Shown here: positions 32,760-63,502 of the stretch, piece by piece | How the letters are laid out: each line of letters opens with the position of its first letter | Position numbering within the stretch: position 1 is the first letter of the stretch | From: Posidonia oceanica | Lineage: Eukaryota; Streptophyta; Magnoliopsida; Alismatales; Posidoniaceae | Direction of reading: 5' to 3' | Assembly (NCBI GenBank): GCA_037176725.1 | Contig: JAZBRS010000075.1 | Coordinates: 71,364,001-71,428,000, forward strand | Length of the DNA stretch: 64,000 bases | Notes under the pieces: generated by a model | What the model was told of the DNA's origin: nothing | The model's input: the letters and a program-made list of their open reading frames with translations, nothing else | Databases searched by the model: none | Program-made: the position numbers and the translations under genes

Positions 32760-32815
32760 GTAAGACGCTCAAACTGGCACTTATAACGTAAGACGTAGAA
32801 AATCAGGCGTCCAAC
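32760..32815. repeat. Twin-hairpin cassette C1
   Basis: Arms GTAAGACGC, ACTTATAAC, GTAAGACGT, GCGTCCAAC with spacers of 10, 0 and 10. Confidence 0.85.
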
Positions 32816-32830
32816 ATCCCTCTGTTGATC

Positions 32831-32885
32831 GTTATATGCTTCAGATAACGCGTCCAACATTGGACGCTGATTTTGCCCGTTTAAC
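32831..32885. repeat. Twin-hairpin cassette C2
   Basis: Arms GTTATATGC, GCGTCCAAC, ATTGGACGC and a degenerate CCGTTTAAC, with spacers of 10, 0 and about 9. Confidence 0.75.
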
Positions 32886-33339
32886 GCCCCTGAACTGTTT
32901 TCCTGTATTACCTTAGCAAATTTGTTAGTTCATCTAGGGGTATGATTGCCCCTAATCCAAAGTGACTTCTGCAAGCTCAGAAACATCCTTAACTTTGCGA
33001 AATCAACCTGGTCACAAAACACTTGGTAACAACCTATATACAATGCATACTTTAAGCAAACCTAATGCTATGAATGGGAAAGAAGTCTTGATGCAATGGA
33101 GAAACTTAGGTTTTGAATAACAAGTATTGGCCTCAGCTTTGTTGTCTAAAGATGATATGCCAAACGAGGGACTGTCTCTTCTTGAGATCCCAGTCTTAGC
33201 TCGTAGGCGAATACCAAGCGACCGTCCTGAATAGGAGGGGTCGAGTACGACGCAGAGTCGTAAAATGTCCTAGATTTCGCATCACTAGCCTTTACTTGTT
33301 ATCAGTTTCATGAGATGATGTTGGTTGGGTAAATTTTAT

Positions 33340-33556
33340 CCTTTTCACTATTTTCGGATTTTTTATTTTATCATTTTTTTGGATTTTTGACTTTATCATT
33401 TTTTGGATTTTTGACTTTATCATTTTGTTGGATTTTTGACTTTATCATTTTTTGGATTTTTTTTATTTTTGATTTTTTTTGATTTTATCATTCTTTTGAT
33501 TTTATCATTTTTTTTTATTTTTGACTTTATATTTTTTTGGAATTTTGATTTTATGG
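33340..33556. repeat. T-rich tandem repeat (about 25 bp)
   Basis: Degenerate copies of GGATTTTTGACTTTATCATTTT. Low complexity; small ORFs here are not supported. Confidence 0.75.
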
Positions 33557-34319
33557 GAGATGAAGAATCCTCCGGGAAGTTGGGAAACTGGAGACCTCAT
33601 GGTTGGAAAACCTTGGCAGTTTGGTCCCTTGTGCATCCTAGAGTCAGAAAATACCACGGGCTTGCTTTGGCACCTAACTGCCCTTAGACCTAGGCCTCTG
33701 CCCCTTGCCTCTTAGTGTACAGTGCAGGATGTGGGTAGAAGGAAAGTCCATGCCCTATCCTAAGATGTTGGCTGAAGATTTGAAGCCTAAACCCCTCCTA
33801 GTTCAAGGTTGATTCTTACTACGCTTAGTATTCCCCAGTTTTTCAGTTTTGACTCTCGGACAGCTTCTTTGCTACCGTCTTTTCCACTCTCTTTCTTTTT
33901 CCTTGCACATGGACAGCTTCTTTGCAGCCTTGTTTTCTGACCCTTTTTTGCTTTCTTTTCTGGGTACTTTGGTAAGTAGTCTCACCCCTTCTGAGTGTTC
34001 GGTCAATAGATACTTGTTCTTTGACGAACCGAGACACTCTTTCATTTGATACACTCCCCTCTTTTCTGTGCTTCTAGGTTTTAGCCTTAGATGCCTACCC
34101 AATTTGTACTAGGGTAACGCGTTTGACTCGAGGGATGTGTGTGGACTTGTTATTCATGAACTGGGAGGGGGCTCCTTATTTTTTGCCTCTATCTCAGTGT
34201 CGGACCATTTCCTTTCCTTCTCCCACAAGGAGTTTGTGGGGTGAGGCTAAGGCAAGATTCCTAGGCTTCAACAGCAGTAGGCCCTTAAACATGGGTAGTC
34301 TAATGGCTCAGTGTGCATA

Positions 34320-34933
34320 TCAAGGGTTGTACCTTTTGAGGTGCAGTGCATTCCAAGGGTATTCAAGCCTAGTGCCATTCTCCCTGGCCAAACAATAGGC
34401 ATTGCCTGGATATGCCTCAACCACCAAGTATGGTCCTTCCCAATTTGGTCTCAGTTTCCCATGCTTTCGAGGAAGGATTTCTTTAAGCACCCATTCACCA
34501 ATATTGAATTTACGTTCAATTACTTTCTTCTTATATGCTCTTGCAAGTCGTTCTTGGTAGAGGCGTGCATGCTCAGCTGCTTGCAACCACTTCTCATCTA
34601 GCAAATCCAACTGTAGACTTAATAATTGCTTCTTATCGTCGGCAATTATCTCGTTGTCGAGTTGTATCCTGGATGAGGGGACCATGACCTCAAATGGGAC
34701 TACCGTCTCCATACCATAAGTAAGCGCAAACGGGGTTTGGCCCGTAGGCGTTCTTATGAAGGTTCGATAGGCCCACAAGGTATCAATTAGCTTATCTGTC
34801 CAGTCATGTTCCTTGGCTCCTTCTAACTTTTTCTTAAGGATTCGTATTAATGTTTTATTAGTAGCTTCAGCTTGTCCATTACCTTGGGGGTAATATGGCG
34901 ATGAATGATGCAAATCGATCTTGCACTTCTTCC
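34320..34933 (-). pseudogene. pol: Integrase, end of core and C-terminal region, element C
   Basis: Reads 'KIDLHHSSPYYPQGNGQAEA' (with the catalytic Glu), 'TLWAYRTFIRTPTGQTPFAL', 'YGMETVVPFEVMVPSSRI' and 'GKLRPNWEGPYLVVEAYPG', ending 'LHLKRYNP' with TAA at 34320-34322. This half is free of stops. It joins directly to the first part of the core at about 34930 in another frame. The segment that should carry the second catalytic Asp (SDNGT-type) is missing, so the integrase is dead. Confidence 0.88.
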
Positions 34934-35553
34934 GCTTCAGCCCATTTGGTGAAGTACTCAGTGGCTGTGAGGATGAAACTATTCTGCTTTTCAGTGTCGA
35001 ATGGTCCCACAACATCAAATGCCCACATGGAGAAAGGCCACACTGCTTGAGTCGGATTCAACTCTGATGCTGGCGCTTGTATTCTATCTGCATGGATCTG
35101 GCACTGCTTGCACCTTCTCACTTTGTTTGCGCAATCTGCCTCCATTGTGGGCCAGTAGTACCCTCTACGCAATATCATTTTTGCCATGAATTGAGAACTG
35201 ATGTGTCCTCCACATATGCCTTCATGCATTTCTCCGATGATAACTTCAACCTCCTCATAAGTGACACAGCGCAGCTCTATTCCGTTGAAGGACCTTTTGA
35301 AATGGACCCCGACTCTCATGAAGTATCTTGTAGCCATCCTTCGAACTGCCTCCTTGTCCTGTGAAGTTGCGTAGTTGGGGAAGATCCCATCTTGAATGTA
35401 GTTCTGGATGTCAAAGAACCATGGGTTCCCATCATCCTCTATGTTGTAGCAAACTTCAAACATGCCTACTCTTGATCCCCCAAGTTTTTGTCTAAGCTCC
35501 ACGGCCCATGGCTCAGTTGAGTCAATGGCAGGTATCCCGTGTTGCTGAACCAT
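34934..35553 (-). pseudogene. pol: Integrase zinc-binding region and first part of core, element C
   Basis: Begins 'MVQQHGIPAIDSTEPW'. The zinc region is complete, with 'HEGICGGHISSQFMAKMILR' (two His) and 'RRCKQCQIHADRI' (C-x2-C). The core starts with 'PFSMWAFDVVGPFDTEKQ' (first Asp) and 'FILTATEYFTKWAEAEE', then meets the deletion at about 34930 and shifts frame. The normal role is joining element DNA to the chromosome. Unlike A, the zinc ligands are preserved. Confidence 0.88.
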
Positions 35554-36651: not shown

Positions 36652-37223
36652 CTATGCTATTGCTCTGGCCTTCTGTGGGTCCACCTCGATTCCTCTTTTG
36701 CTGATGATGAAGCCCAGTAGCTTCCCGGCCATTACCCCAAACACACATTTCTTTGGTTTCATTTTCAGCTGATATTGCCTTGCTCTGCTCAGTACCCTTC
36801 TTAGCGCCTCAAGTGTGCCTCCCTTGTTCTTGATTTGACCAAGATATCGTCAACATACACTTCCATGCAGTCGTGCATCATGTCGTGGAAGATGGCCATC
36901 ATCGCTCTCTGATATGTTGCACTGGCGTTCTTGAGACCGAATGGCATGACTACGTAGCAGTACGTCCCCCATGGTGTGATAAACGACGTCTTCTCTTAGT
37001 CCTCCTCTGCTAGCTTGATCTGGTTGTAACCGGAGAAACCATCCATGAAAGATAGCATCTCAAATCCTGCTGTATTGTCCACTAGTAAGTCAATATGTGG
37101 CAAAGGGAAGTCATCCTTGGAACAGGCGGTGTTGAGGTTGCGATAGTCAATGCAAACCCGAACCTTCCCGTCCTTTTTGGCCACTGGTACTATATTTGAG
37201 ACCCAACTAGGGTACACAACCAC
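36652..37223 (-). pseudogene. pol: Reverse transcriptase, element C
   Basis: Starts 'YPSWVSNIVPVAKKDGKVRV' and 'CIDYRNLN', then 'DDFPLPHIDLLVDNTAGFEM' and 'FMDGFSGYNQIKLAEED'. A TAA follows near 36996, where A continues with Ile. Beyond it 'TPWGTYCYVVMPFGLKNASA' and an intact YVDD box (36846-36857) are readable. Near 36820 the frame shifts before the thumb, which is followed by 'KCVFGVMAGKLLGF'. The polymerase motifs are better preserved than in A. Confidence 0.87.
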
Positions 37224-39713: not shown

Positions 39714-42700
39714 TGTAGTAATCTCGGTGTTCAGATCGTCCACACACACTACCAGAAGCTCGCATGCACCGATCGGAATTAGGCTCACTATAAGCGGCTA
39801 TGTCCGAGGAGGAAGGCTCAACTCGAAAACACTTAAAACAAAGGAGAAAAGATAAGAAAAGAAGAAGATAAGACAATTCAGAGTCGCCACCATGTCTATT
39901 ATCGGGAGACAACGAAAATCGGGGGAAATGCGCGAGTTAACACGCAAAACCAAGTAAAGGATGCAATGTAAAGCAATGCAAAGGAAAACAAATGCAAATG
40001 ATATGAGTCATGCCTAGGATAAAGGCAATATGGTCATTACGGGCCAAAAGGCAGGGCAAGGACTCCTGTTACGTGCGGGGAAGGTGTTAGGCACCCCCGA
40101 CACGCCCGAGAATCGGTCTTTCTAGGCTTACACTCGCATATGCAGGAGAATGCAGGTTTGAATGCCTAAATGCCAATGAATGCCGGAATGAATGCTCAAA
40201 GGTGTGCTCTAAGTGATGGAATGCAATGCAGGAAAGCAAACGCGCAGTCTAAGTGCTCAGCAACGCTGTCTATGTTCCGAACCGGTCGAAACCAGGCTCG
40301 TGAGAACTCCAGGCAGTAAGCATCACTGCCCTATATGCAAATGCAAGCGAAAAAGCAAAACGGCGGTAAAACCAAGCAGTGCAGGCGACATGCAAGAGAA
40401 AACGACGTAAAACGCGCGAAACGATGTGAGAAACAGAAGCGGCATGCGAAATGGTGCAAGAAAACGAGATCGGCATGCAAAACAGCGCAAAAGACAGAGC
40501 AGCATGCAAAACAGTGCGAAAAAGCAAAGCCAGCACGCAAAAAGGTGCAAGAAACAAAAGCAGCACGCAAAACGGTGCCAAAAGCTAAGCAGGCACGCAA
40601 AATGGTGCCAAAAGCGAAGCGGGCACGCAAAACGGTGCCAAAAGGAAAGCAGGCACGCAAAACGGTGCCAAAACCAAAGCAGGCACGCAAAATGGTGCCA
40701 AAAGGGAAAGTGGGCACGCAAAACAGTGCCAAAGCAGGCGAAATAAAACATCGAAAAAGTCATGTAAATGCAGATGCAAAGAGGAGAGCAAGAGAAGCAA
40801 AGGGGAGGCAAACGATGCAAGTGTAAGAACAAGCACCGCTTAAAGACCATGCAATGTAGGTGTGAAGACCTACAAAGGGAAAGAGAAGCAAGTGGGAGGA
40901 TTACCACTGTCCTACGACTATTTCCCACCAAAGTGTCCCACGATGTGTCTCGCACGCTGCCAAATGCTGGCGATGCGATCGGATCGTGGAAAAGGGGGAA
41001 GAAAGTCGCAATTAGTAGTGAATCCAGGGAAAACACAACACAAGGCACTGAGAGTACGCAAAAAGGGGAAACAGAGTTGATAGATAGGAAGAGGGAGTCC
41101 TAATCTATATGCTCGAGAAATCAGAAAGCAAAAACAATGCTTGCAATGCAAATGGGGTGCAAATGAATGCTGTGCAGGACTTCATAAGGACTTACCTTGG
41201 AAACCTGAAGCCTGATCTGAGAATTGCTTGGTCCATGTTGAAGAGCGCTCCGCCGGGGTCGTCCAGGTAGCTTGGTTGTGAAGATCTGACGGCCAGATCA
41301 AAAGATATCCCAGCTTCAAGGCAGAGGGGCCAGAACAGGGGAGAAGAATGGATCTAGGTGTTCAGGAGGTCCTAAGGGTGTGCAAAACAGGTCCTCCCAT
41401 GTAAATGGGAGCTAAGTGTGCTCAAGTGTGTGCAAGAATGCCAAATGCAAAGATGCATGAGTGCAATGCATGCAGGAATGCAAGAAAAGGACCTAAGAAT
41501 GACTTTTCAGAAAACTTGGGAGCTTATGTGCAAGTTTTGAAAAAGTGGGACCTAAATGCAAAGATTTTGAAAAATTATGGGCTTATATGCAAGATTTTTG
41601 AAAGCTGGAGGGTCTGAGTGCAATTTTGCAAAATACAGGGTTTAAAATGCAATTTTATAAGGTAAACATGCATTAGAATAGGTTTTGAAATTATGTGGAG
41701 GATTAACATGCAATTTTGAAACATGCAGGGGTTGAAATGCAATTTTATAAGCAAAAATGTGGTCTTAAATGGTCTGTGAATGCAAACAGAGGGCCTATGT
41801 GCAATTTTTAAACATGCAGGGTCTAAAATGCAATTTTATTAGCAAAAATATGCGTTTAAATGAGTTTTATAAACATGTAGAGGACCTATGTGTAATTTTA
41901 AAACATGTAGGGTCTAAAATGCAATTTTATAAGCAAAAATGTGATTTTTGAATGGTCTGTGCATTAACAGTGGACCTACGTGCAATTTTTAAATATGCAG
42001 GGTCTAAAATGCAATTTTATAAGGAAAAAATGCATTTAACAGATGCTGTGCATGAATATGGAGGACCTATATGCAAAAATTAAAATGCATGGGTGGAATA
42101 ATGCAATGCAGTAAGAAAAGATGAGAAATGAATGCATAATCAACAGATCAGAGGACTAAAATGTAAATAGAGGAAAGGACAGGGTTCACAAATGCAATTT
42201 ACTTAGGTAAACCTAAAGCATTAAATCAGATTATTAATTAAAGGACTAACATGCAATAATAAAAAGCTGCAGGGCCTGAACTAAAATAAACTTAAAAGAA
42301 AAACACAGCAGAATGACTAACATGCAATTAGACAGTTTTTTAAGTTTGTCATGCAATTTAATAAGATTTAAATTCAGAATTAAATGAATGATAAACGATG
42401 GCTGGACTGGAATGTAATAAACTAAAAACAGAAGCTAAAAATGCAATTAATGGCAAAGTAGCTAAGCAAAGCAAAAATAAGGCTACAGTGAAAACACAGA
42501 ACGACGACCACTGTAGCAGTTGCTACCAACGGCCGTCGAGGGAGGCAGAGGGATGCTGGGGCGGCGCAGAAGGGCGGGCGGTGTTCACCGGAGCTTGACG
42601 GAGATCGGAGCAGCGTTGGGGAGTCATGGCACGATCTGGAGATGACCGGAGACGACGACGGAGCACTGTGGAAGGTTTTAAAGCAGGCCGGAGAACTAGA

Positions 42701-45267: not shown

Positions 45268-45272
45268 CGTAT

Positions 45273-48162: not shown

Positions 48163-48219
48163 GTAATACGCCTCAGTATAAGGCGTATAACGTTGGACGC
48201 ACAATATCAGGCGTTCAAC
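48163..48219. repeat. Twin-hairpin cassette C3
   Basis: Arms GTAATACGC, GCGTATAAC, GTTGGACGC, GCGTTCAAC with spacers of 11, 0 and 10. Within each hairpin the arms share their own core (TATA-type in the first, TTG-type in the second). Confidence 0.85.
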
Positions 48220-48589
48220 GTCCCCAGTTGTATTTCCTCCAACTCTTTTCCTGTCTTCTCTTTTCTTCTCAGCCTTTCACTCTCCTTCTTTTTGGCTTTT
48301 CTGATTTATTTTTTTTGATGATTTCTTTTCTTTTTTTTGTTCTTTTTCTGCTTTTTCTCTTTTTTTGCTTTTCTTCTTTTTCTTTTTCTTTTTCTTTTTT
48401 TTTTTGAAGGATTACAAGTGCGAAGAAAGGGAAATTACAAGAACTTTAATACAGATTCCTAAAAAAGGAGTAAAAATAAACAGAGTTGCCCCTAACTGAT
48501 ACTATCACTGTTTTGGATTTTTCAATGTCTTCCCCTGCCAAACAAATCACACAAAGGAGCTATAGATATAACAGCCACACAGAGAATAC

Positions 48590-48645
48590 ATTAGACGCTA
48601 ACTCTGCTGCGTATAACATTATACGCAGGAATCTCAGCGGCTAAC
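48590..48645. repeat. Twin-hairpin cassette C4
   Basis: Arms ATTAGACGC, GCGTATAAC, ATTATACGC, GCGGCTAAC with spacers of 10, 0 and 10. Here the two central arms match each other and the two outer arms match each other. Confidence 0.85.
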
Positions 48646-49358
48646 GCCCTGTTTCAGAGAACTGCACAGCAACACTTTCAATCAGCGATTTAAGGTTTTA
48701 ATTTTTGTTTTCGCTTCGAGATTAGTGTTTTAAACCTACTGTAGCTCTCTGGGTTCCTTAAGGCTTAGGTATGGCTTTTTTTTTTTGGATCTTCTAAGGC
48801 TCCTCACAAGATGGGTGAATATGAATGGTACTACCCCCTACCTCAACTCCTGAGGATGCTAGGGGGAGCCTAAATACACTTAGGTCCCTACACCGTAGAG
48901 ATAGAGCCCAGCGTACTCAGGATTGATCGGGTCACTCACGTATGCATACACAGAAGAAATAAACAAACCACCGAAAGGGGGAGGGAGGAATACAAGTCAA
49001 GGCTTGAGGTTCTAATTATCTTTCACAAAAGGCCAAGGAAGAAGGAGGGCCCCTAGTAAAAGACAATGACAATACAAGTACCTTTTCTAAGCCCCTTGCA
49101 ACAGAGGTGCTTGGGACCTAGATGGTTACTTATATAACCCAAGAAATGACACAAGCAATTTAGTTCCCAATGAGGGCCATGCAAGTCATATAAAATATTG
49201 TGATTTTTTTTTGTTAATTTTTTTGCAAAGCACCCAAAGAAACTGAAGTTCCGGTCCCTACAGCAGAGCTGATCATCTCACACCTCAATTCTTCGTGCTA
49301 GTTATAACAAGGAAAACTAAAAGAAATTTTAAAACAGAAGGGTTTCTGTTCAATAGTC

Positions 49359-49414
49359 GTTAGATGCGGACATTGCAGCGTCCAATGTTAGATGCGCCAA
49401 ATCATGCGTATAAC
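49359..49414. repeat. Twin-hairpin cassette C5
   Basis: Arms GTTAGATGC, GCGTCCAAT, GTTAGATGC, GCGTATAAC with spacers of 10, 0 and 10. Confidence 0.85.
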
Positions 49415-49863
49415 GTACTGACAGTATTTTTCAGAAAAAACTGTAATTTTTACAGATCACCCCCACGCCCGATAATCCAGAGAGAAGGGGGAGGTGATTT
49501 CAATTATTGACACGAAGAAAACAAACGAAAAAAAAAATCACGACGCCTCAAAACAACAAGAGGAATTTCGCCGTTTCTTTAAAACATACAAGAAAATAAG
49601 AAACTAAAACTAAACTAAGAATGTCAACAATGAAGGAGGAAGAAGAAAGTAAGGGTTTACTTACCTTGCACGGGGGCACTTTTAGCCATCCCACCGTGAT
49701 CGCCAGACTGTGGATATGGGGTTTTTGGAAGTGCGAGAGGAAGAAGATGATGAGGGGGAGGTTTGGGGAAGAAGAGACTTCTTTTGGCTCCCTCTTACTC
49801 GCTCTATCTTCTCTTTCTCGTGGTCCCCTTTTTGTATCCGACTCCGTCACTCCACGTGTGATG

Positions 49864-49881
49864 GAATCGGTGTGATCGCCA
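49864..49881 (-). promoter_or_regulatory. Probable primer-binding site of element C
   Basis: On the minus strand TGGCGATCACACCGATTC starts one base after the presumed LTR end (...CTGACA), the same spacing as in A. Only the first six bases agree with A's PBS, and I cannot name the tRNA. Confidence 0.55.
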
Positions 49882-50520
49882 CTGTCAGTTCGCTTTCGCC
49901 GGGCCTCGAGACACCTTTGGGGAGATGTAGTGTGGTTGCGGGTTCAGCTACCTTGGGACAACGCCAACGTTGCCCAAGGGTGCCCGTGCTTGGTAAGCTC
50001 TTTCTTCCTTCTTCCTCCTTGTATGACAAACGTTAGCAAAGCAAAACAAACCAAACAATATAAAGATGGATCAATATGTGTAGTAATCTATCCAGAGTTA
50101 GTAGAAAAGAAAATAAAGAAAGCGTAGTGAGATACGTACCCGAGGGGTTTGATCCCCCCCGGTTGCAACTAAAAGAGATGTATGCCTAGTTAAAAATATA
50201 TGAACTTGAAATAAAAATGCTTGATTATACTACGGAGTTAAACATGTAATATCAAAAATAAAAAAAGAAATGAATGAAATAGAGTCTCCTCTGTCTATGC
50301 ACAAGGTGCAAACTGTGTTGGCATGAAGCCAACAACAACAAAAGGATCCTCAAGCTTTTTCTAAGACTCTCCTTCTTTCAAAAACTCTCTTCTCTCTTTC
50401 AATTCTTAAGGACCTCACTTCTCTAAGATTTTCAATCTCAAGAGCATGTGAGTTCCAAAAGTTTCTTCACTCCTTTTCTCTCTCAAAATTCCGACCATGA
50501 ACCCTGTGGGGGTACCCTTG

Positions 50521-50528
50521 CTTTTATA
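50521..50528 (-). promoter_or_regulatory. TATA box of element C's LTR
   Basis: TATAAAAG on the minus strand, about 590 bases into the LTR. Cassettes C6 and C7 lie 65 and about 295 bases upstream. Confidence 0.6.
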
Positions 50529-50592
50529 GAAGCAAGGGAGGAACAAAAAAGGACACAAATGCCAAGTCAGCAGAGTTTCCTGTTTCAGAAGT

Positions 50593-50648
50593 GTTATACA
50601 CTGGAAAACCAGCGTATAACGTTATAAGCGAGAGAACTCGTGTATAGC
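50593..50648. repeat. Twin-hairpin cassette C6
   Basis: Arms GTTATACAC, GCGTATAAC, GTTATAAGC, GTGTATAGC with spacers of 10, 0 and 10. All arms carry TATA-type cores in place of TTAGA, but the layout is unchanged. Confidence 0.88.
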
Positions 50649-50821
50649 GACCTCCGAGGCATAACTGCCAGGATCAAAGAAGATTCTCCAATTAAGGAGT
50701 CTTTAAGTGTGATTAAACTCGACTTTGATGGCTTTGACCAGTCAACAGGTTCCAAAGAAGGTAAAAACATGATTTCTGTATTAGGCCAAATAAGGAAAGC
50801 TTTGGCTTACTGGGTTGCCAC

Positions 50822-50905
50822 ATTGGACGTTGGAAAAGCAGCGGCCAACATTAGCCGCTGGAGATCCAGCGACCAATGTTGTACGCTGAGAAGCCAACGG
50901 ACAAC
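50822..50905. repeat. Triple-hairpin cassette C7
   Basis: Six arms: ATTGGACGT, GCGGCCAAC, ATTAGCCGC, GCGACCAAT, GTTGTACGC, ACGGACAAC, with spacers of 10, 0, 10, 0 and 10. All three spacers begin TG and end CA. Confidence 0.88.
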
Positions 50906-51114
50906 ACCCTTAATCAGTTTGACTTCCAAATTTGGTCAGGACGTGAAGAACACTCAGGTTGCCAACACTTGGGGCTTAGAAAGGTATAGCATTTTGGACT
51001 TGAGAGGAACATTTGGCTCAAGTGAGATTCAGAAATGGGTGGAGGGCTTCTAAGAACGACCTAATGCAAGAGACTATCCTAAGGTAAAGAGAGTGCCAAA
51101 ACAGGGTTTCTACA

Positions 51115-53190: not shown

Positions 53191-53191
53191 G

Positions 53192-53603
53192 TTATCTATT
53201 CTCTTTTCCGGCTGATAAGTCCGAAACTTATCTATCTTTTTTCCCGGCTGATAAGTCTGAAACTTATCATATCCTCCTTTTGCGGCTGATAAGTCCGAAA
53301 CTTATCTATTTCGGGTAATAAGTCCGAAACATCTCTATTCTGGCTGATAAGTCCGAAACTTATCTATTTCGGGTGATAAGTCCAAAACTTATCTATTCTG
53401 GCTAAGAAGTCCGAAACTTATCTATTTCAGGTGATAAGTCCGAAACTTATCTATTCCGGCTGATGAGTCCGAAACTTATCTATTCTCTTTTCCGGCTGAT
53501 AAGTCCGAAACTTATCTATCTTCTTTTCTAGCTGATAAGTCCGAAACTTATCTATCTTCTTTTCAAGTGATAAGTCTGAAACTTATCTATTTCGGGTGAT
53601 AAG
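53192..53603 (+). repeat. GATAAG hairpin array of D, first part
   Basis: About a dozen units containing GATAAGTCCGAAACTTATC (arms GATAAGT and ACTTATC), 28-39 bp apart with variable pyrimidine spacers. Interrupted by solo LTR G at 53603/57678; the broken unit resumes at 57678. Confidence 0.9.
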
Positions 53604-56600
53604 TGTAGACACCCCATTTTGACAGCTAAATTGGTGGTTCTCTCTGAAACCCTAGGTCAAACCCTAGGTTAGCACACACCTAAACCCTAGGTCAAACTCT
53701 AGATTAGCACACACCTAAACCCTAGGTCAAACCCTAGGTTAGCACACACCTAAACCCTAGGTCAAATCCTAGGTTAGCACACCTAAACCCTAGGTCAAAC
53801 CCTAGGTTAGCACACCTAAACCCTAGGTTAGCACTTCCTAAACCCTAGGTTAGCACTTTCTAAACCCTAGCAAAATCCCAGAAACCCTAGGTCACACCCA
53901 TGCATGCATAAGCCCAAGCCCAAGCCTTCTTTTTTTTTCTTCTTCTTTCTTTTCCTCTTCTTCTTCTTCTTCTTTTTCTCTTTTCTTCTTTATCCCTTTA
54001 TTTCTCAAGTCCAGCCCAGCCCAATTTCTTTCTCCCCTTCTTTTTTCTTTTTCCACTCCTTTTCTCCTCACAGCTTCAGCCCGGCCCATCTCCTCCTCTT
54101 CTCTTTTCCTTTCTTTTTTCTTTCTTTTTTCCATGGCCTAGCCTACTCTCCTCCTTCTTCCTTTTTTTTCTTTCTTTCTTCCTTTTTCCGCCCATGCACA
54201 GCCATCTACCACCTCCTCCTTCTTCTTCCTTCTTCTTCCTTCTTATCCTTCCTCCCCCACCACCACTTACTTCCCACTCATCCACACTTACTCTTCTCCT
54301 CCACCACTAACTCCCTCTCCCATCCACCATTAACTCTTCTCCTCATTTCCCGCTCTCCCAGCCAATCCACAGCTCCCAATCCCTCTGCCAATTCTCTGCA
54401 AAACACACCCTTTGCACCCTTATCTTTTTGGCTTTTCATCCAACAAGCAGATCCCTTCCCATCTAGATCCAATCACCACAGCAAGGCAGAGCAACTCATT
54501 TGCCAATCCCACGCATAACAGGAGCAGCACCACCCACCAGCAGCACCCATTTTCCTCCATAGCAACCTCCCTTTTTCTCCCAACTAGCACAGCATCCCCA
54601 CGCATCCACTTAGGCTCCCTCCACCTTCCTTAGCCCTCCACGCAGCCCAGAGAGAGCCACCATGTCCCTGAGAGAGCTACATCTGCAAAAGAGAAGAAAA
54701 GTCACCAGTTGGACCCATTTCTTCAAAATAGCAGCAGAGAGGGAGGGAGAGCAATTAACTTGCTCCAGACCTTCCTCAGAGCTCCAACAACTTGCGCCGA
54801 TCGTCCCCAGCAGCCGCAGCTCACCGCAGCGCCGCCGTGACCCTCCACCGAACAGCCGCACCCACTAGAGGTCGGCAGCATGCTCCGGCCATCTCCGTAG
54901 GTAATGGATGCCATATTTGGGTTCCTTGCATGCTTCTTTAGCTTCCTAGATAGTTAGAAATTAGTTTAGAGCTTCAGCGTCCGATTCGAGCTCCGTCGCT
55001 ACAGTCGTCTTCTCCAGCGACGCTCCACAGCTCCATCGCACTCCCAGCCAGCTTCGACCTTCCGAATCGGTCCCCAAGCACCGCCGGACCTCCAGCAACT
55101 CGGTCCTGCTCTGTCCTTGCATCGCCGTTGCCCCCAGCATCCGCACAGTCTTCGACCTCCTCTGCAGCAACCAGCCGACGTCGACAGCACGCTTCGATCA
55201 CCGTCACGCGCCGCTGAACCCACCGGGGCATCCTGATGGACCACCTCCAGCCTCCGCGCGCCTCAGCACCGCTGCCCGCCTGCCGGACCGCCGCTGCAGT
55301 AGCCTCCTCCAACGCCAGCGGCTGAGCTCGAAGGGCACTGTAGCTACTATAGCACACTTAAGTTTAAAAGTTTTAATTTAATTTCGTTACATGCATTGCA
55401 ATAAAGCCCTTAAGTTTACCTTATTTACTTTGCAATCCAGCTCTGGTTTATAAATCATTTAATTCATGATTTAAACTATATTGCATTGAAATAAAGTACT
55501 GCAGGTTATTATATTTGCGTTTCAGTCCAGCTTTAATTCAAGTTATTTAAAATTCTTTGCTGCATTGCATTTAGGCCCTTATGTTTCTTTATGTTTGTAT
55601 TTAGGTCCTTTTTCAATTGAAAAGCATTTAATCTGCATTTATAACTATATTGCATTGCATTAAATATCTGTATGTTTTAAGAATTGCATTTGGGTCCAGT
55701 CACATGTCATCTGTGATTTAAATGTTATTTTTAACCTTATTGCATTGTAATAAAGCCCTCTGAGTTTTAATTTTTGCATTTGGGTCCTGTTTACTTTAAA
55801 TTGTGATTTAAATGTGAATTTTAAACTTTATTACATTGCAATAAAGCCCAACAAGTTCCAATTATTGCATTTAGGTCCTATTTACTTTAAACTGTGATTT
55901 AAAATGCAATTTCAAACCTTATTGCATTGTAATAAAGACCAGCAAGTTTGCATTATTGCATTTAGGTTCAGTTTGCTTCCAACTGCCATTTAAATGCAAT
56001 TTTAAACTTTATTACATTGCAATAAAGTCCTGTGACTTGTGTTTATTACATTTAAGTCCTTTTGCATGCATGCATCATTTAATTTGCAATTTTGATCATA
56101 TTGCATTGCTTTAAATGCCCAACAGTTTTCCAAATTGCATTTCAATCCTTGTTTTTAACTGTTGCCTGTTTAGCTTTGCATTTTAAACCTTGCATGTTTT
56201 CAAAATTACATGTAGGTCCTCATGCCTAGTTTCTTCATGCTTGCATCCTGCTTTGCATTTTAAATTCAACGGTTAGGTCTAATTGCATGTTAGTCCTAAA
56301 ACCTACTGTTGTCTGCTTTCCTGTATTGCATTGCACTTAGGTCTAGCATGTTTTCAAAACTGCATGTAGGTCCATTTCTTGCATTATTGCATGCATCTTT
56401 TAATTAATATTGCATTCTGCCATCCCTTGCCTATTGCATTGCTGCATTACATTTTGCATGCATTTATCCTGTTGCATTGCATTTTGCCATGTTTTTGCAT
56501 TTAGGCTCTTGGATTTACTTTTAATTGCACTTAGGTCCCTGCATTTGCATTCTTGCATGCATTGCATCCCCATATCATTGCATATAGCTCCCTTGCATAC

Positions 56601-57677
56601 TTCTGAGCATCCTTAGCCTCATTGCATGTAGGACACCCTGCATTGCACACACTTAGGGGCATTTTGCACTTAAACCCCTACTTAGACCACTTTTATGGCC
56701 CTTGAGCCATCTGACTTGATCCTTGAATAACTTTTGATCGGATCGTTGGATCTTCACGATCTAACTATCCTGGTCTTCCTGGTTGAATGATCTTTCATTC
56801 TAACCAAAGTTATTTCAGGTCAGGCCTCAGATCTTCAGGATAAGCCCATCTGAATCACTGCATAGCACTCATTGCCTTATCATTTGCATTGCATGCATCG
56901 TTTTCGAGATCTGTTTTCTCGCACATGTAGATTAGGCTTTGTCGCCCCTGCTTTGCTTCCTTTGCATGTCGCATGCTTGCATAGCATGGTTTTCCGCCCC
57001 TGCTTTCACTTTCCTTTGCATGTCGCTTGCATTGCCTGGTTTTCATCGCTGTTTTGTTTTATCGCCTGCATTTGCATTTAGGGCAATGATGCTTACTGCC
57101 TAGGAGTTCTCACGAACCAGGGCTTGCCCGTTCGGAACACTAGCAACGCTGCTGAGCACATAGATTGCACGTTTAATTCCCTGCACGCATCTTAGCACTT
57201 AGAGCATACATTTGAGCATGCAATTAAGCATTCATGGCATTTAGGCATTCAAGGCATGCATCTTCCTGCATATGCAAGCGAGAAGCCTAGAAAGAACGAT
57301 TCTCAGACGTATCGGGGGTGCCTAACACCTTCCCCGTACGTAACAGGAGTCCTTGCCCTTTCTCTTGGCCCACAATAACCATTATGCCTTCATCCTAGGC
57401 ACGAGTCATAGCATTGCATAGCATCGCATCCCTTTGCATCCTTTTTGCATGGTTTTGCAGGTCTTTCATGCATTTCCCCAGTTTTCCTTGTCTCCCGACT
57501 TAATAGACATGGTGGCAACTCTGATTTTTCTTATCTTTCTTTTTTTCCTCTTTTGCCAGTGTTTCCGAGTAGAGTTTCCTTCCTCGGATCCCACCGCTAA
57601 TAGTGAACCTAATGTCGATTGGTGCACGCGAGCTTTGGTATCGTGCATGGACGATTCGATATTTCAGGATTACTACA
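53604..57677 (+). mobile_element. Solo LTR G (4074 bp) with TSD ATAAG
   Basis: Begins TGTAGACACCCC and ends GGATTACTACA. ATAAG lies before (53599-53603) and after (57678-57682). No PBS or coding region is inside. It holds about a dozen AAACCCTAG words at the start (53647-53900), pyrimidine-rich tracts (53925-54260), a CpG-rich part (about 54780-55330), degenerate TTGCATTTAGGTCC repeats (about 55390-56600), the conserved block (about 57286-57395) and a PBS-like word TGGCAACTCTG (57513-57523). It lacks the 30-bp array of A and F. Confidence 0.92.
53647..53900 (+). repeat. Telo-box-like AAACCCTAG repeats in G
   Basis: Twelve AAACCCTAG words in about 250 bp, arranged as CTAAACCCTAGGTCAAACCC units with GTTAGCACACAC spacers. 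The core matches the plant telo-box AAACCCTA, but spacing and spacers rule out a telomere. Confidence 0.85.
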
Positions 57678-58916
57678 ATAAGTCTGAAACTTATCTATTT
57701 CGGGTGATAAGTCCGAAACTTATCTATTCCGGCTGATAAGTCCAAAACTTATCTATTCTCTTTTTCGATTGATGAATCCGAAACTTATCTATTCTCTTTT
57801 CCGACTGATAAGTCCGAAACTTATCTATCTTCTTTCCCGATTGATAAGTCCGAAACTTATCATATCCTCCTTTTGCGGCTGATAAGTCCAAAACTTATCT
57901 ATTTCGAGTGATAAGTTCGAAACTTATCTATTCCAGCTGATGAGTTTGAAACTTATCATTCTCTTTTCTGGCTGATAAGTCCAAAACTTATCTATCTTCT
58001 TTTTGGGTAATAAGTCCGAAACTTATCTATTTCCGGTGATAAGTCCGAAACTTATCTATTCCGACTGATGAGTCCGAAACTTATCTATTCCTCTTTTCCG
58101 GCTGATAAGTCTGGAACTTATCTATCCCCTTGTCCGGCTGATAAGTCTGAAACTTATCTATTCCCTTTTCCGACTAATAAGTCCGAAACTTATCTATCCT
58201 CTTTTGCGGTTTATAAGTCCAAAACTTATCTATTCCCTTTTCCGGCTGATAAGTCCGAAACTTATCTATCCCTTTTTGCGGTTGGTAAGTCCGAAACCTA
58301 TCATATCCTTTTCCGACTGATAAGTCCGAAACTTATCTATCCTCTTTGCGATTGATAAGTCTGAAACTTATCATATCCTTTTCCGGCTGATAAGTCTAAA
58401 ACTTATCTATCCTCTTTCCCGGCTGATAAGTCCAAAACTTATCATATCCTCCTTTTGCGGCAGATAAGTCCGAAACTTATCTATCCGCTTTTCCGATTGA
58501 TAAGTTCGAAACTTATCTATTCCCTTTTCTGGCTGATAAGTCCGAAACTTATCTATCCACTTTTCCGGCTGATAAGTCCAAAACTTAGCATATCCCCCTT
58601 TTACAGCTAATAAGTCCGAAACTTATCTATCTCCTTTTGCGGCTGATAAGTCTGAAACTTATCTATTCACCTTTTCTGGCTGATAACTCCAAAACTTATC
58701 ACATCATCCCCTTTTCGGTCGATAAGTCTGAAACTTATCTATTCCGATTGATGAGTCTGAAACATATCTATTTCGGGTGATAAGTCCGAAACTTATCTAT
58801 TTCGGTTGATGAGTCCGAAACTTATCTATTTCGGTCGATAAGTCCGAAACTTATCTATTTCTGTTGATGAGTCTGAAACTTATCTATTTCGGTCAATAAG
58901 TCCGAAGCTTATCATA
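57678..58916 (+). repeat. GATAAG hairpin array of D, second part
   Basis: Roughly forty further units of the same type as 53192-53603. Spacers vary (CTATTC, CTATCCTCTTTTGCGG, CATATCC) more than the arms. Confidence 0.9.
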
Positions 58917-59287: not shown

Positions 59288-59387
59288 CATCTGTAGACAC
59301 CCCGATTTTGTAGTCCTTCGTCGGCGATTTTCTCCCAAGAATGTGCTCGGTTATGGCGGCCCCCACCTATTCACCAATCCAAAAACC

Positions 59388-59560: not shown

Positions 59561-59603
59561 CCAACCAAAAACACCCAAAATATCCAAAAATACTCTCTGG
59601 ATC

Positions 59604-59661
59604 GTTGGACGCTGGACATACCTGCATCTTATGTAAGACACAAGGGAACCCAGTGTCTAAC
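59604..59661. repeat. Twin-hairpin cassette D1
   Basis: Arms GTTGGACGC, GCATCTTAT, GTAAGACAC, GTGTCTAAC with spacers of 11, 0 and 11. Confidence 0.85.
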
Positions 59662-59681
59662 ATCTCTCAGCTCTTTGGGGT

Positions 59682-59739
59682 GTTAGACGCTACCTGAGGC
59701 AGCGTCCTATGTTGGACCCAGCTCAAATACGCGTCGAAC
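59682..59739. repeat. Twin-hairpin cassette D2
   Basis: Arms GTTAGACGC, GCGTCCTAT, GTTGGACCC, GCGTCGAAC with spacers of 11, 0 and 11. Confidence 0.85.
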
Positions 59740-60736
59740 ACACCGGGACTGATGGAGAATGGTTTTGGATTCCAATCGACTCCCAAAGTGCAAATACCAT
59801 TGTACCCTCCGTCCATAACCTTATCCCAGCCATGTCCGAGACACCTCATTTCCAATTCCCACGTTACAAGCCATGCAAACCAAATAAAACCATTTTTTGC
59901 TTCTTCATTGTGGAGGCGGCACCCATTTTTCTACGAGAAACCAGAGCAAACCGGAGCAAACCACAGCCCAATTACACCCAAGTTCTCACACCTCCGGTCA
60001 CCTCGAACCTTCCCGAAGCCTTGCCAAACGACCCCGGCCACCACAGTAGCCGTCCGAGCCATTGCAAGCCAGAGAAAGTCGCCGGCGTCGAGGAAGCAAC
60101 ACCAAACTCATACACAGGTAAGTCTCCTCCTCTCTTAGCTTAGAATCCTTACTTCAACATCGTGGATGCTTGTTTCGATGTGACCTATTCAAGTTTACTT
60201 ACATATGGTCTCTGTTTTGCCGCCACTTCTTAGCTCCAGCGATGGGTTTTCCCGCACTAGGCCGACGACCCACGAGTGTGCGGTGACCCACCCCTGAGTA
60301 TGAGTTTTCTCACGTCGCATGGCCAAGCCTCGACCTCCCTCCAACCCTCTGATGCACCCTCAGTGTGAGACTTGGGTTAACGGCCTCTCCCATGGCCGGT
60401 CCACCCGAGTTCACCGGCACAGTCCCATGGAGGACGGGGAGGAGTGGCCACTAGACGTTTTTCCATTCCATTTGCATCCTTGACATCCTCTTGACCTTCC
60501 CGAGCCTCCACCATAAGCCCAGGCCGCACACCATGGGTTCCCGGCCCTCCAATGGCCGAAGAACCCATAGGATTCCGGCAAGAGGCAAGTGGAGGTGGTT
60601 GGAACGATCCACACCATCGTTTTCCATAATTTTTGCATGTTTATGATGGTGGTTGCATGCTCTTGCTTAATCAGAAGCTATTTACAAGATTTGAATCGAT
60701 TTGGATGTCTGATTATGCCATGAGATCAGTCGAGCT

Positions 60737-60793
60737 GTAGGAAGTTGTATCTGGTGCGTCCTACATAGGACGCAGCCAGAGCATGCATCCAAC
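60737..60793. repeat. Twin-hairpin cassette D3
   Basis: Arms GTAGGAAGT (degenerate), GCGTCCTAC, ATAGGACGC, GCATCCAAC with spacers of 10, 0 and 11. The inner spacer ends extend the central palindrome (CTGG...CCAG). Confidence 0.8.
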
Positions 60794-60963
60794 ACCACTG
60801 AGTGTTTTTACACCTTTTCAGTTTCAGAAATATCTTGATTATTTTTTATGTTTGATTCATGCCTGCCTGCAAAGATTTTAATTTATTCTTATCATGCTTC
60901 TTCCTTGTAAAACATTTTTAATATCTTAAAATAATTTTTCTCAATTCAAATCTCTATCAGTGC

Positions 60964-61020
60964 GTAGGGCGCTATGCATGTTGCATCGTATGTATGATGC
61001 AGCTAATGCTAGCATCCTAC
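60964..61020. repeat. Twin-hairpin cassette D4
   Basis: Arms GTAGGGCGC, GCATCGTAT, GTATGATGC, GCATCCTAC with spacers of 10, 0 and 11. The central pair shares a private core (CGTAT/GTATG). Confidence 0.82.
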
Positions 61021-61201
61021 ACCTCTGATATGAATTTCACTTGTTATCCTTCATAGAAATGTTAAGATTATTTCTTAATGCTCAATACATGTCATGTACA
61101 GTCTATTTTGATTTAACCTTATCATGATTCTATTGTAGAAGCATCTGATTTGAAAATATGCATTTTTCTCTGAATATTATCCTAGAAACTGTTTTTGGAG
61201 T

Positions 61202-61259
61202 GTAGGACGTCTTACTGATCTGTGTCCTACATAGGACGCAGACATAGATTACGTCCTAC
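61202..61259. repeat. Twin-hairpin cassette D5
   Basis: Arms GTAGGACGT, GTGTCCTAC, ATAGGACGC, ACGTCCTAC with spacers of 11, 0 and 11. Confidence 0.86.
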
Positions 61260-61444
61260 AACTCTGTCCATATTTACAAATTTTCTTCAGTTCCTTTAAT
61301 GAGTTTTTTTGTCAATATCTGAGGTTTGATGTTTGATGTCAAGGTATGTTTGATCTTATTACTCACCATATTTGTTTCATGGGATTATTTGATAAGAATT
61401 TAAATTACCTGCCTTGCTCCTGCTTGAGCATCTATATTTTTTGT

Positions 61445-61502
61445 GTTCAACGCTGCAGTATATTGCGTCTTACATAGGACGCTAGAATTCCCAGCATCCA
61501 AC
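61445..61502. repeat. Twin-hairpin cassette D6
   Basis: Arms GTTCAACGC, GCGTCTTAC, ATAGGACGC, GCATCCAAC with spacers of 11, 0 and 11. Confidence 0.83.
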
Positions 61503-62044
61503 ACTTTCAGTAAACTAAATTGCATTTTGTAGTTTTACAACATTGGTTTGGGTCCGTTTGCCTTGATTTTAATCATCCAACATGATTTGCATGTCTACAG
61601 TGTTTTGAGGCATTTAACTTTCATTTTTGGCATATTTCAAAGATATTTAACATATTTTCAAATGGCATATAGCATATTTCATTTGGCATGGCGTATCGCT
61701 TTTGGGCGTATAGCAAATGGCATCATTGCCTACATTAGCCACAAATGAGCAGAATAGCCCAGAAAGACCGACTCTCTCGGGCGCATGGGGGTGCCTAACA
61801 CCTTCCCCATGCGTAACAGGAGTCCTTGCCCGATCTCTGGCCCGCAATGACCTTGTGTCATATCCTTTACATTTTTTTATCATTTTACATGCTTTCCGGT
61901 TTTCCTCATCTTTCCGGATTCCAAAATATACTAGGTGGCGACTCCAAGTTTTTGTTTTCTTTTCTTCAGCCTTCGCCATTTTTTACATCATTTTGCCGTG
62001 ACCCACGATTCCATTCGTTCAAGCTGTTCGGTCAAATGGTTACA

Positions 62045-62395
62045 GTGGTTTCTGGCCATATTGGGCCTAGAGCTTTCCCGCTTATTACAGCATAGTGTTT
62101 TCTGTCTTGTTTTGGACCAGCGGGCCGAGCTTTGATAAATAAGAATTGTTTTACATTTGATTTTCCTGGTTTGGCTTATTGGACTTCGGGAAAGATGTTT
62201 TATTATTATATAATGATTATGTCGACCCGGATTTGGGGTTTTGACCGGTTTACGCCTTATTGTTGTTTTATGCCAGTTTTCTCGTGGTTTTTGCGAGGTG
62301 TGTGCTGGGTGACAATTTCTGGTCACTCACATGTGTTTTATTGTAGTTTTTGTTGTAGGACAGATGATTAGCTGGTGTTGGTTCGTAATGCATAT
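62045..62395. other. Unassigned sequence between D and H
   Basis: I see no gene, repeat or element end that I can support in this 350-bp stretch. Confidence 0.5.
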
Positions 62396-62456
62396 TGTAG
62401 CGACCCAGATTTTTGGTGGCATTTTAGACTAGATATTTAATCTGGAATCTGAGGGC

Positions 62457-62512
62457 GTTAGACACTGCGAATGCTACGTCTTATGTTAAATGCAAGAAAT
62501 CCCGCATCCAAC
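62457..62512. repeat. Twin-hairpin cassette H1
   Basis: Arms GTTAGACAC, ACGTCTTAT, GTTAAATGC, GCATCCAAC with spacers of 10, 0 and 10. Confidence 0.83.
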
Positions 62513-62543
62513 AGCTGGAATGCGGATTTTCTAGCCTCAGGGT

Positions 62544-62599
62544 GTTAGACGCTAGAGGGCTTGCATCTTATATTAGACGCAAGGAACCCCGTGTTCAAC
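62544..62599. repeat. Twin-hairpin cassette H2
   Basis: Arms GTTAGACGC, GCATCTTAT, ATTAGACGC, GTGTTCAAC with spacers of 10, 0 and 10. It starts 87 bases after H1. Confidence 0.86.
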
Positions 62600-62631
62600 A
62601 CCTGTATGTCGGTGCTCCTAGATTTATGAGT

Positions 62632-62688
62632 GTAAGACGCAGAATGTGGTGCGTCTTATGTAAGACGCATGGACAGATAGCGTGTAAC
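62632..62688. repeat. Twin-hairpin cassette H3
   Basis: Arms GTAAGACGC, GCGTCTTAT, GTAAGACGC, GCGTGTAAC with spacers of 10, 0 and 11. It starts 88 bases after H2 and ends 22 bases before the TATA box. Confidence 0.86.
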
Positions 62689-62710
62689 GCTCTGAGTTGC
62701 ACCAGCTACC

Positions 62711-62718
62711 TATATAAG
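62711..62718 (+). promoter_or_regulatory. TATA box downstream of cassettes H1-H3
   Basis: TATATAAG in the context CTACCTATATAAGGAG. A transcription start about 30 bases downstream is expected but not shown. Confidence 0.6.
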
Positions 62719-63218
62719 GAGTAAGTCTGTGGCTTCTTGGGGGTGTTTTCTTTCCCCTCTTCCTCTCCTTCTCTCCTGGCGATATGAGGGTGCTGCCGGT
62801 GGTTTCTGGGTGCTTTTGGATGCTTGGAAAGATAGGATGAAAGAGGTGAGGCTGGGTTCTTGGATTCAAGTCTCTCTCTCTCTCTTTCTCTTCCCTATCC
62901 CTTGATGGCACCCACAGACCCTCGAGGTTTTTGCTGTGCATGGGTTGTTGCAGGCTTGGTGGATGACCAGAGGATGCTCGAGGTGTGGTCAGAAGCTTGT
63001 GGGGAGCATTGGATCGTGATGGAGATTGCTGTGTTGGCTCGCCTCTTGGGTGCAAGGTACACACCCTGTTAGAAGATAATTGCATGCTTTGGTAGTGTGT
63101 TTTTATTACTTGCATGCCTTGAATATGTGGGTGTGGGTGTGCTTTTGCTTGGCATGAGGTTAGGAGGATTTTGGCATGCCTGTGAGGGAGGTTCTAGTTG
63201 AACCTCCTGATTCAGGGC

Positions 63219-63274
63219 GTTGGATGCACACCTTGGTGCGTCCAACGTTAGACGCTAGCTGAGTTGCGTCTAAC
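63219..63274. repeat. Twin-hairpin cassette H4
   Basis: Arms GTTGGATGC, GCGTCCAAC, GTTAGACGC, GCGTCTAAC with spacers of 10, 0 and 10. The second hairpin is perfectly paired; the first has a single T/G position. Confidence 0.92.
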
Positions 63275-63446
63275 ATCCTTGGTAATGCATGTTTCCCCTT
63301 TTTGAGTTAATTTGTATAGTTTTGGGAGTTGGAGTGTGGTTTGCATGTTTGTTTGTAGTTCCTTGTGGTATATGGTTGTTCTTTACTCAAGATGAGTAGA
63401 ATGTATATAGTTTTAGGAGATTTCAGTAAAGGTGTGAGCCTAGGGT

Positions 63447-63502
63447 GTTAGACGCACAAAGTGCTGCGTCTAACGTAAGACGCAGCACAGTGTGCGTCTT
63501 AC
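63447..63502. repeat. Twin-hairpin cassette H5
   Basis: Arms GTTAGACGC, GCGTCTAAC, GTAAGACGC, GCGTCTTAC with spacers of 10, 0 and 10. Both hairpins are perfectly paired although their cores differ (TTAGA against TAAGA). Confidence 0.93.

What the first reader, a model, noticed from the sequence alone, without database searches (positions are those of the whole stretch)
32760..63502. A dispersed cassette made of two abutting 9-bp hairpins, 18 copies in three elements
Seen: at 18 places (32760, 32831, 48163, 48590, 49359, 50593, 50822, 59604, 59682, 60737, 60964, 61202, 61445, 62457, 62544, 62632, 63219, 63447) the same plan recurs. A 9-bp arm like GTTRGACGC, 10 or 11 free bases, its inverted form, at once the arm again, 10 or 11 free bases, and the inverted form. 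The whole is 56-58 bp with dyad symmetry. Spacer sequence is free while length is fixed. The cassette occurs in C, D's LTR and H and was not seen in A, B, F or G. I know of no described plant repeat with this layout. Inference: a binding platform for a dimeric or tetrameric protein, or a cruciform/RNA structure.
Basis: partly seen in the sequence, partly recalled or inferred. Interest (0 to 1): 0.88.

Follow-up and report, generated by a model that had tools for sequence, protein, structure and literature searches.

The report
Twin-palindrome cassettes in plant retroelement LTRs
A plant genome carries a very large number of copies of a rigidly built 57-base double palindrome inside the non-coding control regions of its retrotransposons, often one nucleosome length apart, which looks like a docking site for a paired DNA-binding protein that has not been identified.

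Summary
All 18 reported cassettes fit arm-N(9-11)-arm'|arm-N(9-11)-arm', the two palindromes abutting exactly in 18 of 18. The window lies in a 2.96 Gb genome, where a hairpin pattern allowing any spacer of 0-30 gives 11,862 + 11,926 matches against 1 + 1 for the reversed control; the 100 places listed all have spacers of 9-11. A systematic sample of 24 x 10 kb holds 43 cassettes, about 5 x 10^5 genome-wide. In the window they lie in non-coding parts of Tat-clade Ty3/gypsy elements; 0 of 96 overlap a detected coding stretch. At 23 homologous places, non-CpG arm positions are 88% identical, flanks 76%, spacers 62%, so the arms look constrained. RNA hairpins are disfavoured: mutually exclusive pairings are equally supported, one direct-repeat arm pair co-varies too, and there is no G-U bias. 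New here: spacing between neighbouring cassettes is quantised (0-64, 160-207, 304-401 bp; step about 176 bp), across unlike sequences, which suggests nucleosome-phased sites. Best reading: a DNA platform for a dimer-of-dimers protein (activator or anti-silencing factor) that opens these LTRs. The protein is unknown; nothing was tested at the bench.

The parts
32760..32815 (.). cassette, element C, region downstream of pol
32831..32885 (.). cassette, element C, region downstream of pol
48163..48219 (.). cassette just upstream of the C gag frame (minus strand)
48590..48645 (.). cassette, C LTR/leader
49359..49414 (.). cassette, C LTR, downstream of splice-donor-like site at 49667 (-)
50593..50648 (.). 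cassette, C LTR, 64 bp upstream of TATA at 50528 (-)
50822..50905 (.). cassette with third abutting hairpin, C LTR
59604..59661 (.). cassette, D LTR
59682..59739 (.). cassette, D LTR
60737..60793 (.). cassette, D LTR, first of a 4-member series with 170-185 bp between members
60964..61020 (.). cassette, D LTR series
61202..61259 (.). cassette, D LTR series
61445..61502 (.). cassette, D LTR series
62457..62512 (.). cassette, H LTR, 198 bp upstream of TATA
62544..62599 (.). cassette, H LTR, 111 bp upstream of TATA
62632..62688 (.). cassette, H LTR, 22 bp upstream of TATA
63219..63274 (.). cassette, H LTR
63447..63502 (.). cassette, H LTR, 172 bp after the previous one
62711..62718 (+). TATA-box-like site of H LTR (TATATAAG)
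   Evidence: same place in copy L026
50521..50528 (-). TATA-box-like site of C LTR (TATAAAAG)
   Evidence: same context in L005, L024, L036, L037
59292..62395 (+). D LTR from its start (TGTAGACACCCC) to the H LTR start; its own end was not fixed (similarity to A's LTR runs to about 62076)
62396..64000 (+). H LTR, from a start inferred from TGTAGCGACCC, to the window end
48240..51114 (-). C 5' LTR/leader, from a start inferred from TGTAGAAACCC at 51114; inner limit approximate
1..645 (+). 3' part of an extra ORF of element C, antisense to its pol
   Evidence: PMD-like N-terminal half seen in copy L013

Best explanation
Each cassette is a double-stranded DNA site made of four half-sites (about YGTTRGACGCTGGA), arranged as two abutting inverted repeats, and bound by two dimers (or one tetramer) of a sequence-specific protein. 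The sites sit in non-coding control regions of several Tat-clade LTR retrotransposon families: upstream of TATA boxes, further along the LTR and leader, and, in one copy looked at, ahead of an antisense extra gene. Neighbouring sites are either close together or separated by about whole nucleosome lengths (176 bp), so a bound array would sit in the linkers of a phased nucleosome array and keep the LTR open: an activator or anti-silencing platform. Shown: anatomy, copy number, conservation of the arms, location, spacing classes. Inferred: protein binding, dimer-of-dimers, nucleosome phasing, activation. Not known: whether the protein is encoded by the host or by the elements.
For: Geometry: junction 0 bp in 96 of 96 cassettes, -1 and +1 being allowed at a 4-bit cost; an unconstrained arm correlogram in 28 loci has its large peaks at 19-20 and 47-49 (facing; 82 and 42 of 143 pairs), 9 (back to back; 41 of 62) and 28-29 (direct; 44 of 67 and 38 of 56), all cassette distances, against 7 pairs of any kind in reversed sequence; genome-wide N{0,30} search 23,788 matches against 2 in control, with spacers of 9-11 in all 100 places listed. 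Constraint: at 23 homologous places defined by alignment and not by the arm profile, non-CpG arm positions are 87.8% identical, flanks 76.1%, spacers 62.0%; arms exceed flanks in 20 and fall below in 3; a called cassette lies at 22. In 63 homologous pairs of called cassettes the figures are 92.1, 75.9 and 69.5%. Between the three window elements arms are 71% identical, spacer ends 33%, flanks beyond 6 bp 26%, random 26-30%. DNA rather than RNA. Non-coding: 0 of 96 cassettes overlap tblastn-defined coding stretches, which make up 13.8% of the sequence. Promoters: TATA-like boxes 22, 111 and 198 bp after three H cassettes, 64 and 293 bp after two C cassettes, and 111 and 187 bp after a doublet ahead of the C antisense ORF in copy L013. 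Spacing: 29 of 29 unique interval types between 65 and 430 bp fall in 160-207 or 304-401; best step 176 bp, none of 4,000 jittered sets as good; the larger intervals alone also fit 176 (p 0.0016-0.0034).
Against: TATA boxes are not significantly enriched: facing outward, 17 within 150 bp (10.8 expected, p 0.24) and 15 at 150-300 (10.1, p 0.25); facing inward, 11 and 24 (cassettes were counted once but random places once per box, and AT repeats inflate all counts). No binding protein was identified; a structure model of a relative of the C extra ORF was poor (mean pLDDT 40.8). Spacer ends are more self-complementary than expected (z up to 3.9 for all distinct spacers, up to 2.4 after removing similar ones), which a pure half-site model does not require, and spacers diverge faster than flanks, which it does not explain. 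Homologous pairs and places are not independent, one search used called cassettes only, and 14 of the 23 places lie in loci fetched because they hold a strict match. Of 269 strong arms in 28 loci 81 lie outside called cassettes (109 arms in reversed sequence). Some 170-185 bp intervals are alike in sequence, so part of the spacing comes from tandem duplication. Unique interval types depend on the cut-off: at 0.5, 18 of 19 fit; the odd one, 291, is a median, not an observed spacing. No MNase or methylation data were available.
Confidence: 0.66

Rival explanations
1. The cassette acts as RNA: two tandem hairpins (or one long hairpin) in the LTR or leader RNA, for packaging, dimerisation, stability or splicing control.
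For: Cassettes fold better than shuffled sequence (mean z -4.2); arm pairs keep pairing with both-side changes; spacer ends are partly self-complementary.
Against: Two incompatible foldings are about equally supported; direct-repeat arms 1 and 3, which cannot pair, co-vary as strongly as hairpin arms (z 4.18; arms 2 and 4 only 1.34); G-U 25 and A-C 28 in transcript sense; sense and antisense energies about equal (-21.5 and -22.0); only 4 of 18 fold as two hairpins; some cassettes lie upstream of TATA boxes.
Confidence: 0.12
2. Tiny mobile or duplicated elements (MITE-like foldback units) spread into these LTRs, with the arms as terminal repeats and no regulatory role.
For: Dispersed copies in unlike LTR contexts with dyad symmetry; outer flanks have a weak GGY consensus.
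Against: Spacers and flanks between elements are near random while arms stay 71% alike, and arms evolve more slowly than spacers and flanks at homologous places; in the 200-kb sample 80 of 90 half-hairpins lie in called cassettes; I saw no target-site duplication in the 18 flanks printed, by eye only.
Confidence: 0.07
3. The 230-bp series and the cassette number come from tandem duplication of one 230-bp unit, only the arms being still recognisable; the nucleosome fit is a coincidence.
For: Some intervals within one LTR are alike (score 48 for 60793 against 61020 in the window; 6 of 34 within-locus pairs above the 99.5% null).
Against: Intervals of 100-420 bp fall into 10 sequence clusters (single linkage, one cluster mixing one-step and two-step intervals), nine of them with a median of 170-189 bp; C and H intervals of 173 and 172 bp fall in other clusters than D's; larger intervals also fit 176 bp.
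Confidence: 0.25
4. A host silencing or insulator protein, not an activator, uses the sites, and the elements keep them because the protein limits damage or because it also helps integration or chromosome organisation.
For: Very high copy number; 20 of 24 departures from CG at arm positions 7-8 are CpG transitions, as expected of DNA that is methylated at times.
Against: A site that only silences the element should decay; instead arms are conserved between families and sit near TATA boxes in three cases.
Confidence: 0.15

Closest known systems
VANC target motifs of Arabidopsis VANDAL transposons (PMC5735166 passages, PMC10398659 abstract)
   Same: Short sequence-specific motif (9 bases for VANC21), many copies in non-coding parts of the element, differing between element families; the element-encoded protein removes silencing.
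   Different: VANDALs are DNA transposons; their motifs form tandem repeats and the passages that I saw do not describe a fixed double palindrome ('palindrom' does not occur in PMC5735166); no VANC-like protein was found here.
Retand-lineage elements with antisense ORFs and tandem arrays (PMC11963269, passages)
   Same: Tat clade, long pol-to-3'LTR region, antisense ORFs that may bind DNA, arrays of family-specific repeats.
   Different: Those LTRs are 315-1,194 bp and the usual domain is TRP28; here the D LTR is at least 2.7 kb and the C antisense ORF is PMD-like. The passages describe no double palindrome in the LTR (no 'hairpin' or 'inverted' in the text).
[quoted passage not shown]
   Same: LTR motif with cryptic inverted repeat linked to strict nucleosome placement around a promoter.
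   Different: One 162-bp motif placed on a nucleosome; here a 57-bp motif repeated so that a nucleosome-sized gap lies between copies.
TnpA sites of maize Spm/En and the three 21-bp Tax-response repeats of HTLV-1 LTRs (recalled, no paper seen)
   Same: Clustered sites for an element-encoded regulator near its promoter.
   Different: Different site sequence and layout; no such protein shown here.

Membership tests
VANC-type sequence-specific anti-silencing system | short conserved motif repeated in non-coding parts of the element | tested here: met
VANC-type sequence-specific anti-silencing system | element encodes a VANC-family protein that binds the motif | tested here: inconclusive
   the ORFs scanned with Pfam gave gag/pol domains, G-patch and PMD/DUF7745 or nothing; no VANC query was run and binding cannot be tested
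VANC-type sequence-specific anti-silencing system | loss of DNA methylation on binding | not testable with these tools
   no methylation data
Tat-clade (Ogre/Retand) LTR retrotransposon as host of the cassette | second RNase H between RH and INT | tested here: met
   C: RT_RNaseH, then RVT_3, then Integrase_H2C2; cassette-free A: the same order; criterion from PMC6317226 passages. Not tested for D and H
Tat-clade (Ogre/Retand) LTR retrotransposon as host of the cassette | element limits with target duplication | tested here: inconclusive
   met for the cassette-free neighbours A (CATTG), E (ATAAG) and G (ATACG); C, D and H are incomplete in the window and could not be checked
Functional RNA hairpin pair | pair-specific covariation and G-U tolerance on the transcribed strand | tested here: not met
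   spacer-end pairing leaves a residue
Known Rfam RNA family | match at gathering score | tested here: not met
   0 matches in the window
Nucleosome-phased regulatory array | spacing in whole nucleosome repeats | tested here: met
   with the tandem-duplication caveat
Nucleosome-phased regulatory array | measured nucleosomes between sites | not testable with these tools
   no MNase data

The most novel reading that the evidence does not exclude
Several retrotransposon families of one plant share a code: about half a million four-half-site cassettes placed in linker positions one or more nucleosomes apart, recognised by one rapidly evolving factor encoded by the elements themselves (a candidate is the PMD-like antisense protein, whose own promoter carries a cassette doublet in the copy looked at), which builds phased, open chromatin over LTRs and lets these elements escape silencing together.
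Probability: 0.2. Interest if true: 0.95.

Novelty: new variant of a known kind. Interest (0 to 1): 0.82.

Why it matters
TE-encoded anti-silencing through short repeated motifs is described for plant VANDAL DNA transposons. A rigid double-palindrome site shared by several LTR retrotransposon families, present in about 5 x 10^5 copies (bootstrap 2.6-8.3 x 10^5) and spaced in nucleosome-like steps, would extend the idea to LTR elements, offer a ready probe to pull out the binding protein, and make the question of how giant Tat elements escape silencing directly testable with MNase-seq, methylation data and DAP-seq.

Tried and rejected
Rejected: known RNA family; chance palindromes; one recent duplication; bacterial or viral origin (0 exact matches of a longer, strict pattern in viral contigs and genome contigs; the three 18-mer matches are about what I would expect by chance, my own estimate). 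A search for relatives of the C RNase H in viral contigs found none; in the protein collection 467 relatives, the best 57% identical, many named ones from plants, did not name the host species. The eORF structure model was too poor to search. The overall TATA test was not significant. Because cassettes are called by their arms, arm conservation could be an artefact; one search repeats the test on aligned places without the caller and agrees. Literature: searches (0 papers) showed no description of this layout in their listings; only open-licence papers are searched. One search counted 291 papers holding one of four arm 9-mers; 12 were listed, none on plant repeats by title, and the rest were not seen. 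My note says 11 of 20 regions; the right figure is 10 of 20, or 10 of 24.
Full report
Observation. Fitting four 9-bp arms with spacers of 9-12 and junctions of -1 to +1 gave junction 0 in 18 of 18 and spacers of 10 (23), 11 (12) or 9 (1) bases. A profile of the arms scores the 18 at 27.5-57.8 bits when each is left out of its own profile, against a best of 13.1 in 100 shuffled windows. Facing arm pairs with spacer 10-11 are confined to cassettes in the window: one weak one lies outside. The site at 50822 continues into a third hairpin.

Surroundings. The window is a nest of Tat-clade Ty3/gypsy elements: protease with G-patch, RNase H, a second RNase H, integrase zinc finger in A and C. A (659-32578, TSD CATTG), solo LTR E (53604-57677, TSD ATAAG) and solo LTR G (39714 to about 45267, minus, TSD ATACG) carry no cassette. 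C (minus strand, LTR start 51114), D (LTR start 59292) and H (LTR start 62396) do: 7, 6 and 5 in the window. The limits of C, D and H are inferred from LTR-start sequences. Copy L013 of C lacks the A insertion, which shows that 1-658 and 32580 onwards are one stretch. In L013 a doublet of cassettes (2952, 3028) precedes a TATA-like box at 3195 and an ATG at 3299 of an ORF antisense to pol; the ORF is interrupted there, and its first piece has a PMD-like stretch (26.8 bits, below the curated cut-off of 34.9). A's extra ORF passes that cut-off (56.5 bits). The window's part of the C extra ORF has no Pfam match and ten relatives in the protein collection, none with a name.

Genome. The genome search answered twice. 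The pattern GTTAGACGC-N10/11-GCGTCYAAC-GTTRGACGC has 2,423 + 2,421 matches, reversed control 0 + 0. The facing pair with any spacer 0-30 has 11,862 + 11,926, control 1 + 1; the 100 places listed, all on contig 1, have spacers of 9-11. I read 65 distinct spacer strings from them: 11 (43), 10 (21), 9 (1). A systematic sample of 24 stretches of 10 kb from contigs 1, 2 and 74 holds 43 cassettes in 10 stretches; five block shuffles of the first 20 stretches, and those 20 read backwards, held none. This gives about 5.3 x 10^5 per genome, bootstrap 2.6-8.3 x 10^5. Of the 16 loci with cassettes among L004-L031, 14 share DNA of at least 120 bp with the window's elements; L009 and L023 do not. With the window and the loci around strict matches I had 97 cassettes, 96 above 25 bits, all 96 with junction 0; they fall into 49 groups by flank and spacer similarity. 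An arm correlogram without the cassette model shows the same distances. Nine of 75 have a third abutting hairpin.

Constraint. Between window elements arms are 71% identical, spacer ends 33%, flanks beyond 6 bp 26% (random: 30, 26, 26). In 63 homologous pairs of called cassettes from different loci, chosen on outer flank identity, non-CpG arm positions are 92.1% identical, spacers 69.5%, flanks 75.9%; arms exceed spacers in 54 and fall below in 9. As cassettes are called by their arms, I repeated this at 23 places where a BLAST alignment of 250 bp or more spans a window cassette: non-CpG arms 87.8%, flanks 76.1%, spacers 62.0%; arms exceed flanks in 20 of 23, all arm positions exceed spacers in 18 of 23, and a cassette is called at 22. 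The exceptions against arms over flanks include two copies of 50593 (L036, L037). Places in one locus are not independent, and 14 of 23 are in loci fetched for a strict match. Twenty of 24 departures at arm positions 7-8 in the window are CpG transitions. The half-site extends weakly into the spacer (TGGA) and outward (GGY).

RNA or DNA. RNAalifold prefers the central dyad, not two hairpins. Counted on the same alignment, two hairpins give covariation 0.254 and the long dyad 0.280. Identity above permuted partners, over 49 representatives, is z 2.3 and 4.2 for hairpin pairs, 4.2 and 2.8 for the other dyads, and 4.2 and 1.3 for direct pairs. G-U and A-C mispairs in transcript sense are 25 and 28. 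Sense and antisense energies are about equal. This points to arm subtypes shared within a cassette, as for a DNA-binding site. Against it, spacer ends are somewhat self-complementary, and in the 4-nt extension test over 49 representatives the hairpin pairs (z 3.4, 3.5), the inner pair 2-3 (4.3) and one direct pair (3.0) rise, the other two not; over 11 looser groups only 1-2 (2.2) and 2-3 (1.9) do.

Spacing. End-to-start distances below 430 bp fall in 0-64, 160-207 and 304-401, with none between. Collapsed to unique types at 0.55 similarity, 29 of 29 between 65 and 430 fit; the first class has mean 176, sd 8.7. The best common step is 176 bp and none of 4,000 jittered sets does as well; the larger spacings alone fit at p 0.0016-0.0034. 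At the looser cut-off 18 of 19 fit. Intervals of 100-420 bp form 10 sequence clusters, so the step recurs in unlike sequences, though some intervals are tandem duplicates. The class limits were read from the data, so the 29 of 29 figure is descriptive; the step test is the formal one.

Location. 0 of 96 overlap tblastn-defined coding stretches (13.8% of the sequence); coding was defined only by eleven window proteins, so other coding may be missed. TATA-like boxes follow cassettes in H, C and the C antisense promoter, with the H and C contexts repeated in other copies, but enrichment over all cassettes is not significant, and inward-facing boxes are as common.

Reading. The simplest account is a dimer-of-dimers DNA site in LTR control regions, placed in linkers of a phased array. 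VANC systems are the nearest working analogy (PMC5735166 passages, PMC10398659 abstract); QuinCent (PMC11302176 passages) is the nearest LTR case with nucleosome placement. Neither has this layout in what I saw. The protein, the effect on chromatin and the species are unknown here.

Noticed in passing
25542-26401, 53192-53604, 57678-58913: Arrays with period 29, 36 or 39 in the 3' region of A and D containing GATAAGT...ACTTATC-like inverted arms; tandem repeats in this region are described for Retand elements (PMC11963269 passages).
   Followed up: partly
5439-5638, 19391-19521, 31675-31870, 40431-40737: Arrays of period 29-30 with GCACCGTTTTGCGTGC-like units in LTRs that lack cassettes; the period is close to the 28-29 bp of the cassette, but whole-unit dyad symmetry is not above shuffled.
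   Followed up: partly
659-32578: Tat element A with 5.7-kb LTRs about 97-98% alike, holding a minus-strand relative of its own LTR at 18742-24673; its insertion site in C is seen empty in L013.
   Followed up: partly
18016-18702 and 1-645; L013 3299-4643: Extra ORFs with plant mobile domain or a PMD-like stretch: sense in A, antisense in C, the latter with its own TATA-like box and a cassette doublet ahead of it in L013.
   Followed up: partly
L023 9623-9738: Two cassettes directly abutting, giving four hairpins in a row.
   Followed up: no
49667 (-), 60116 (+), 63055 (+): Splice-donor-like sites in the C, D and H LTRs, followed by stretches that hold further cassettes.
   Followed up: no
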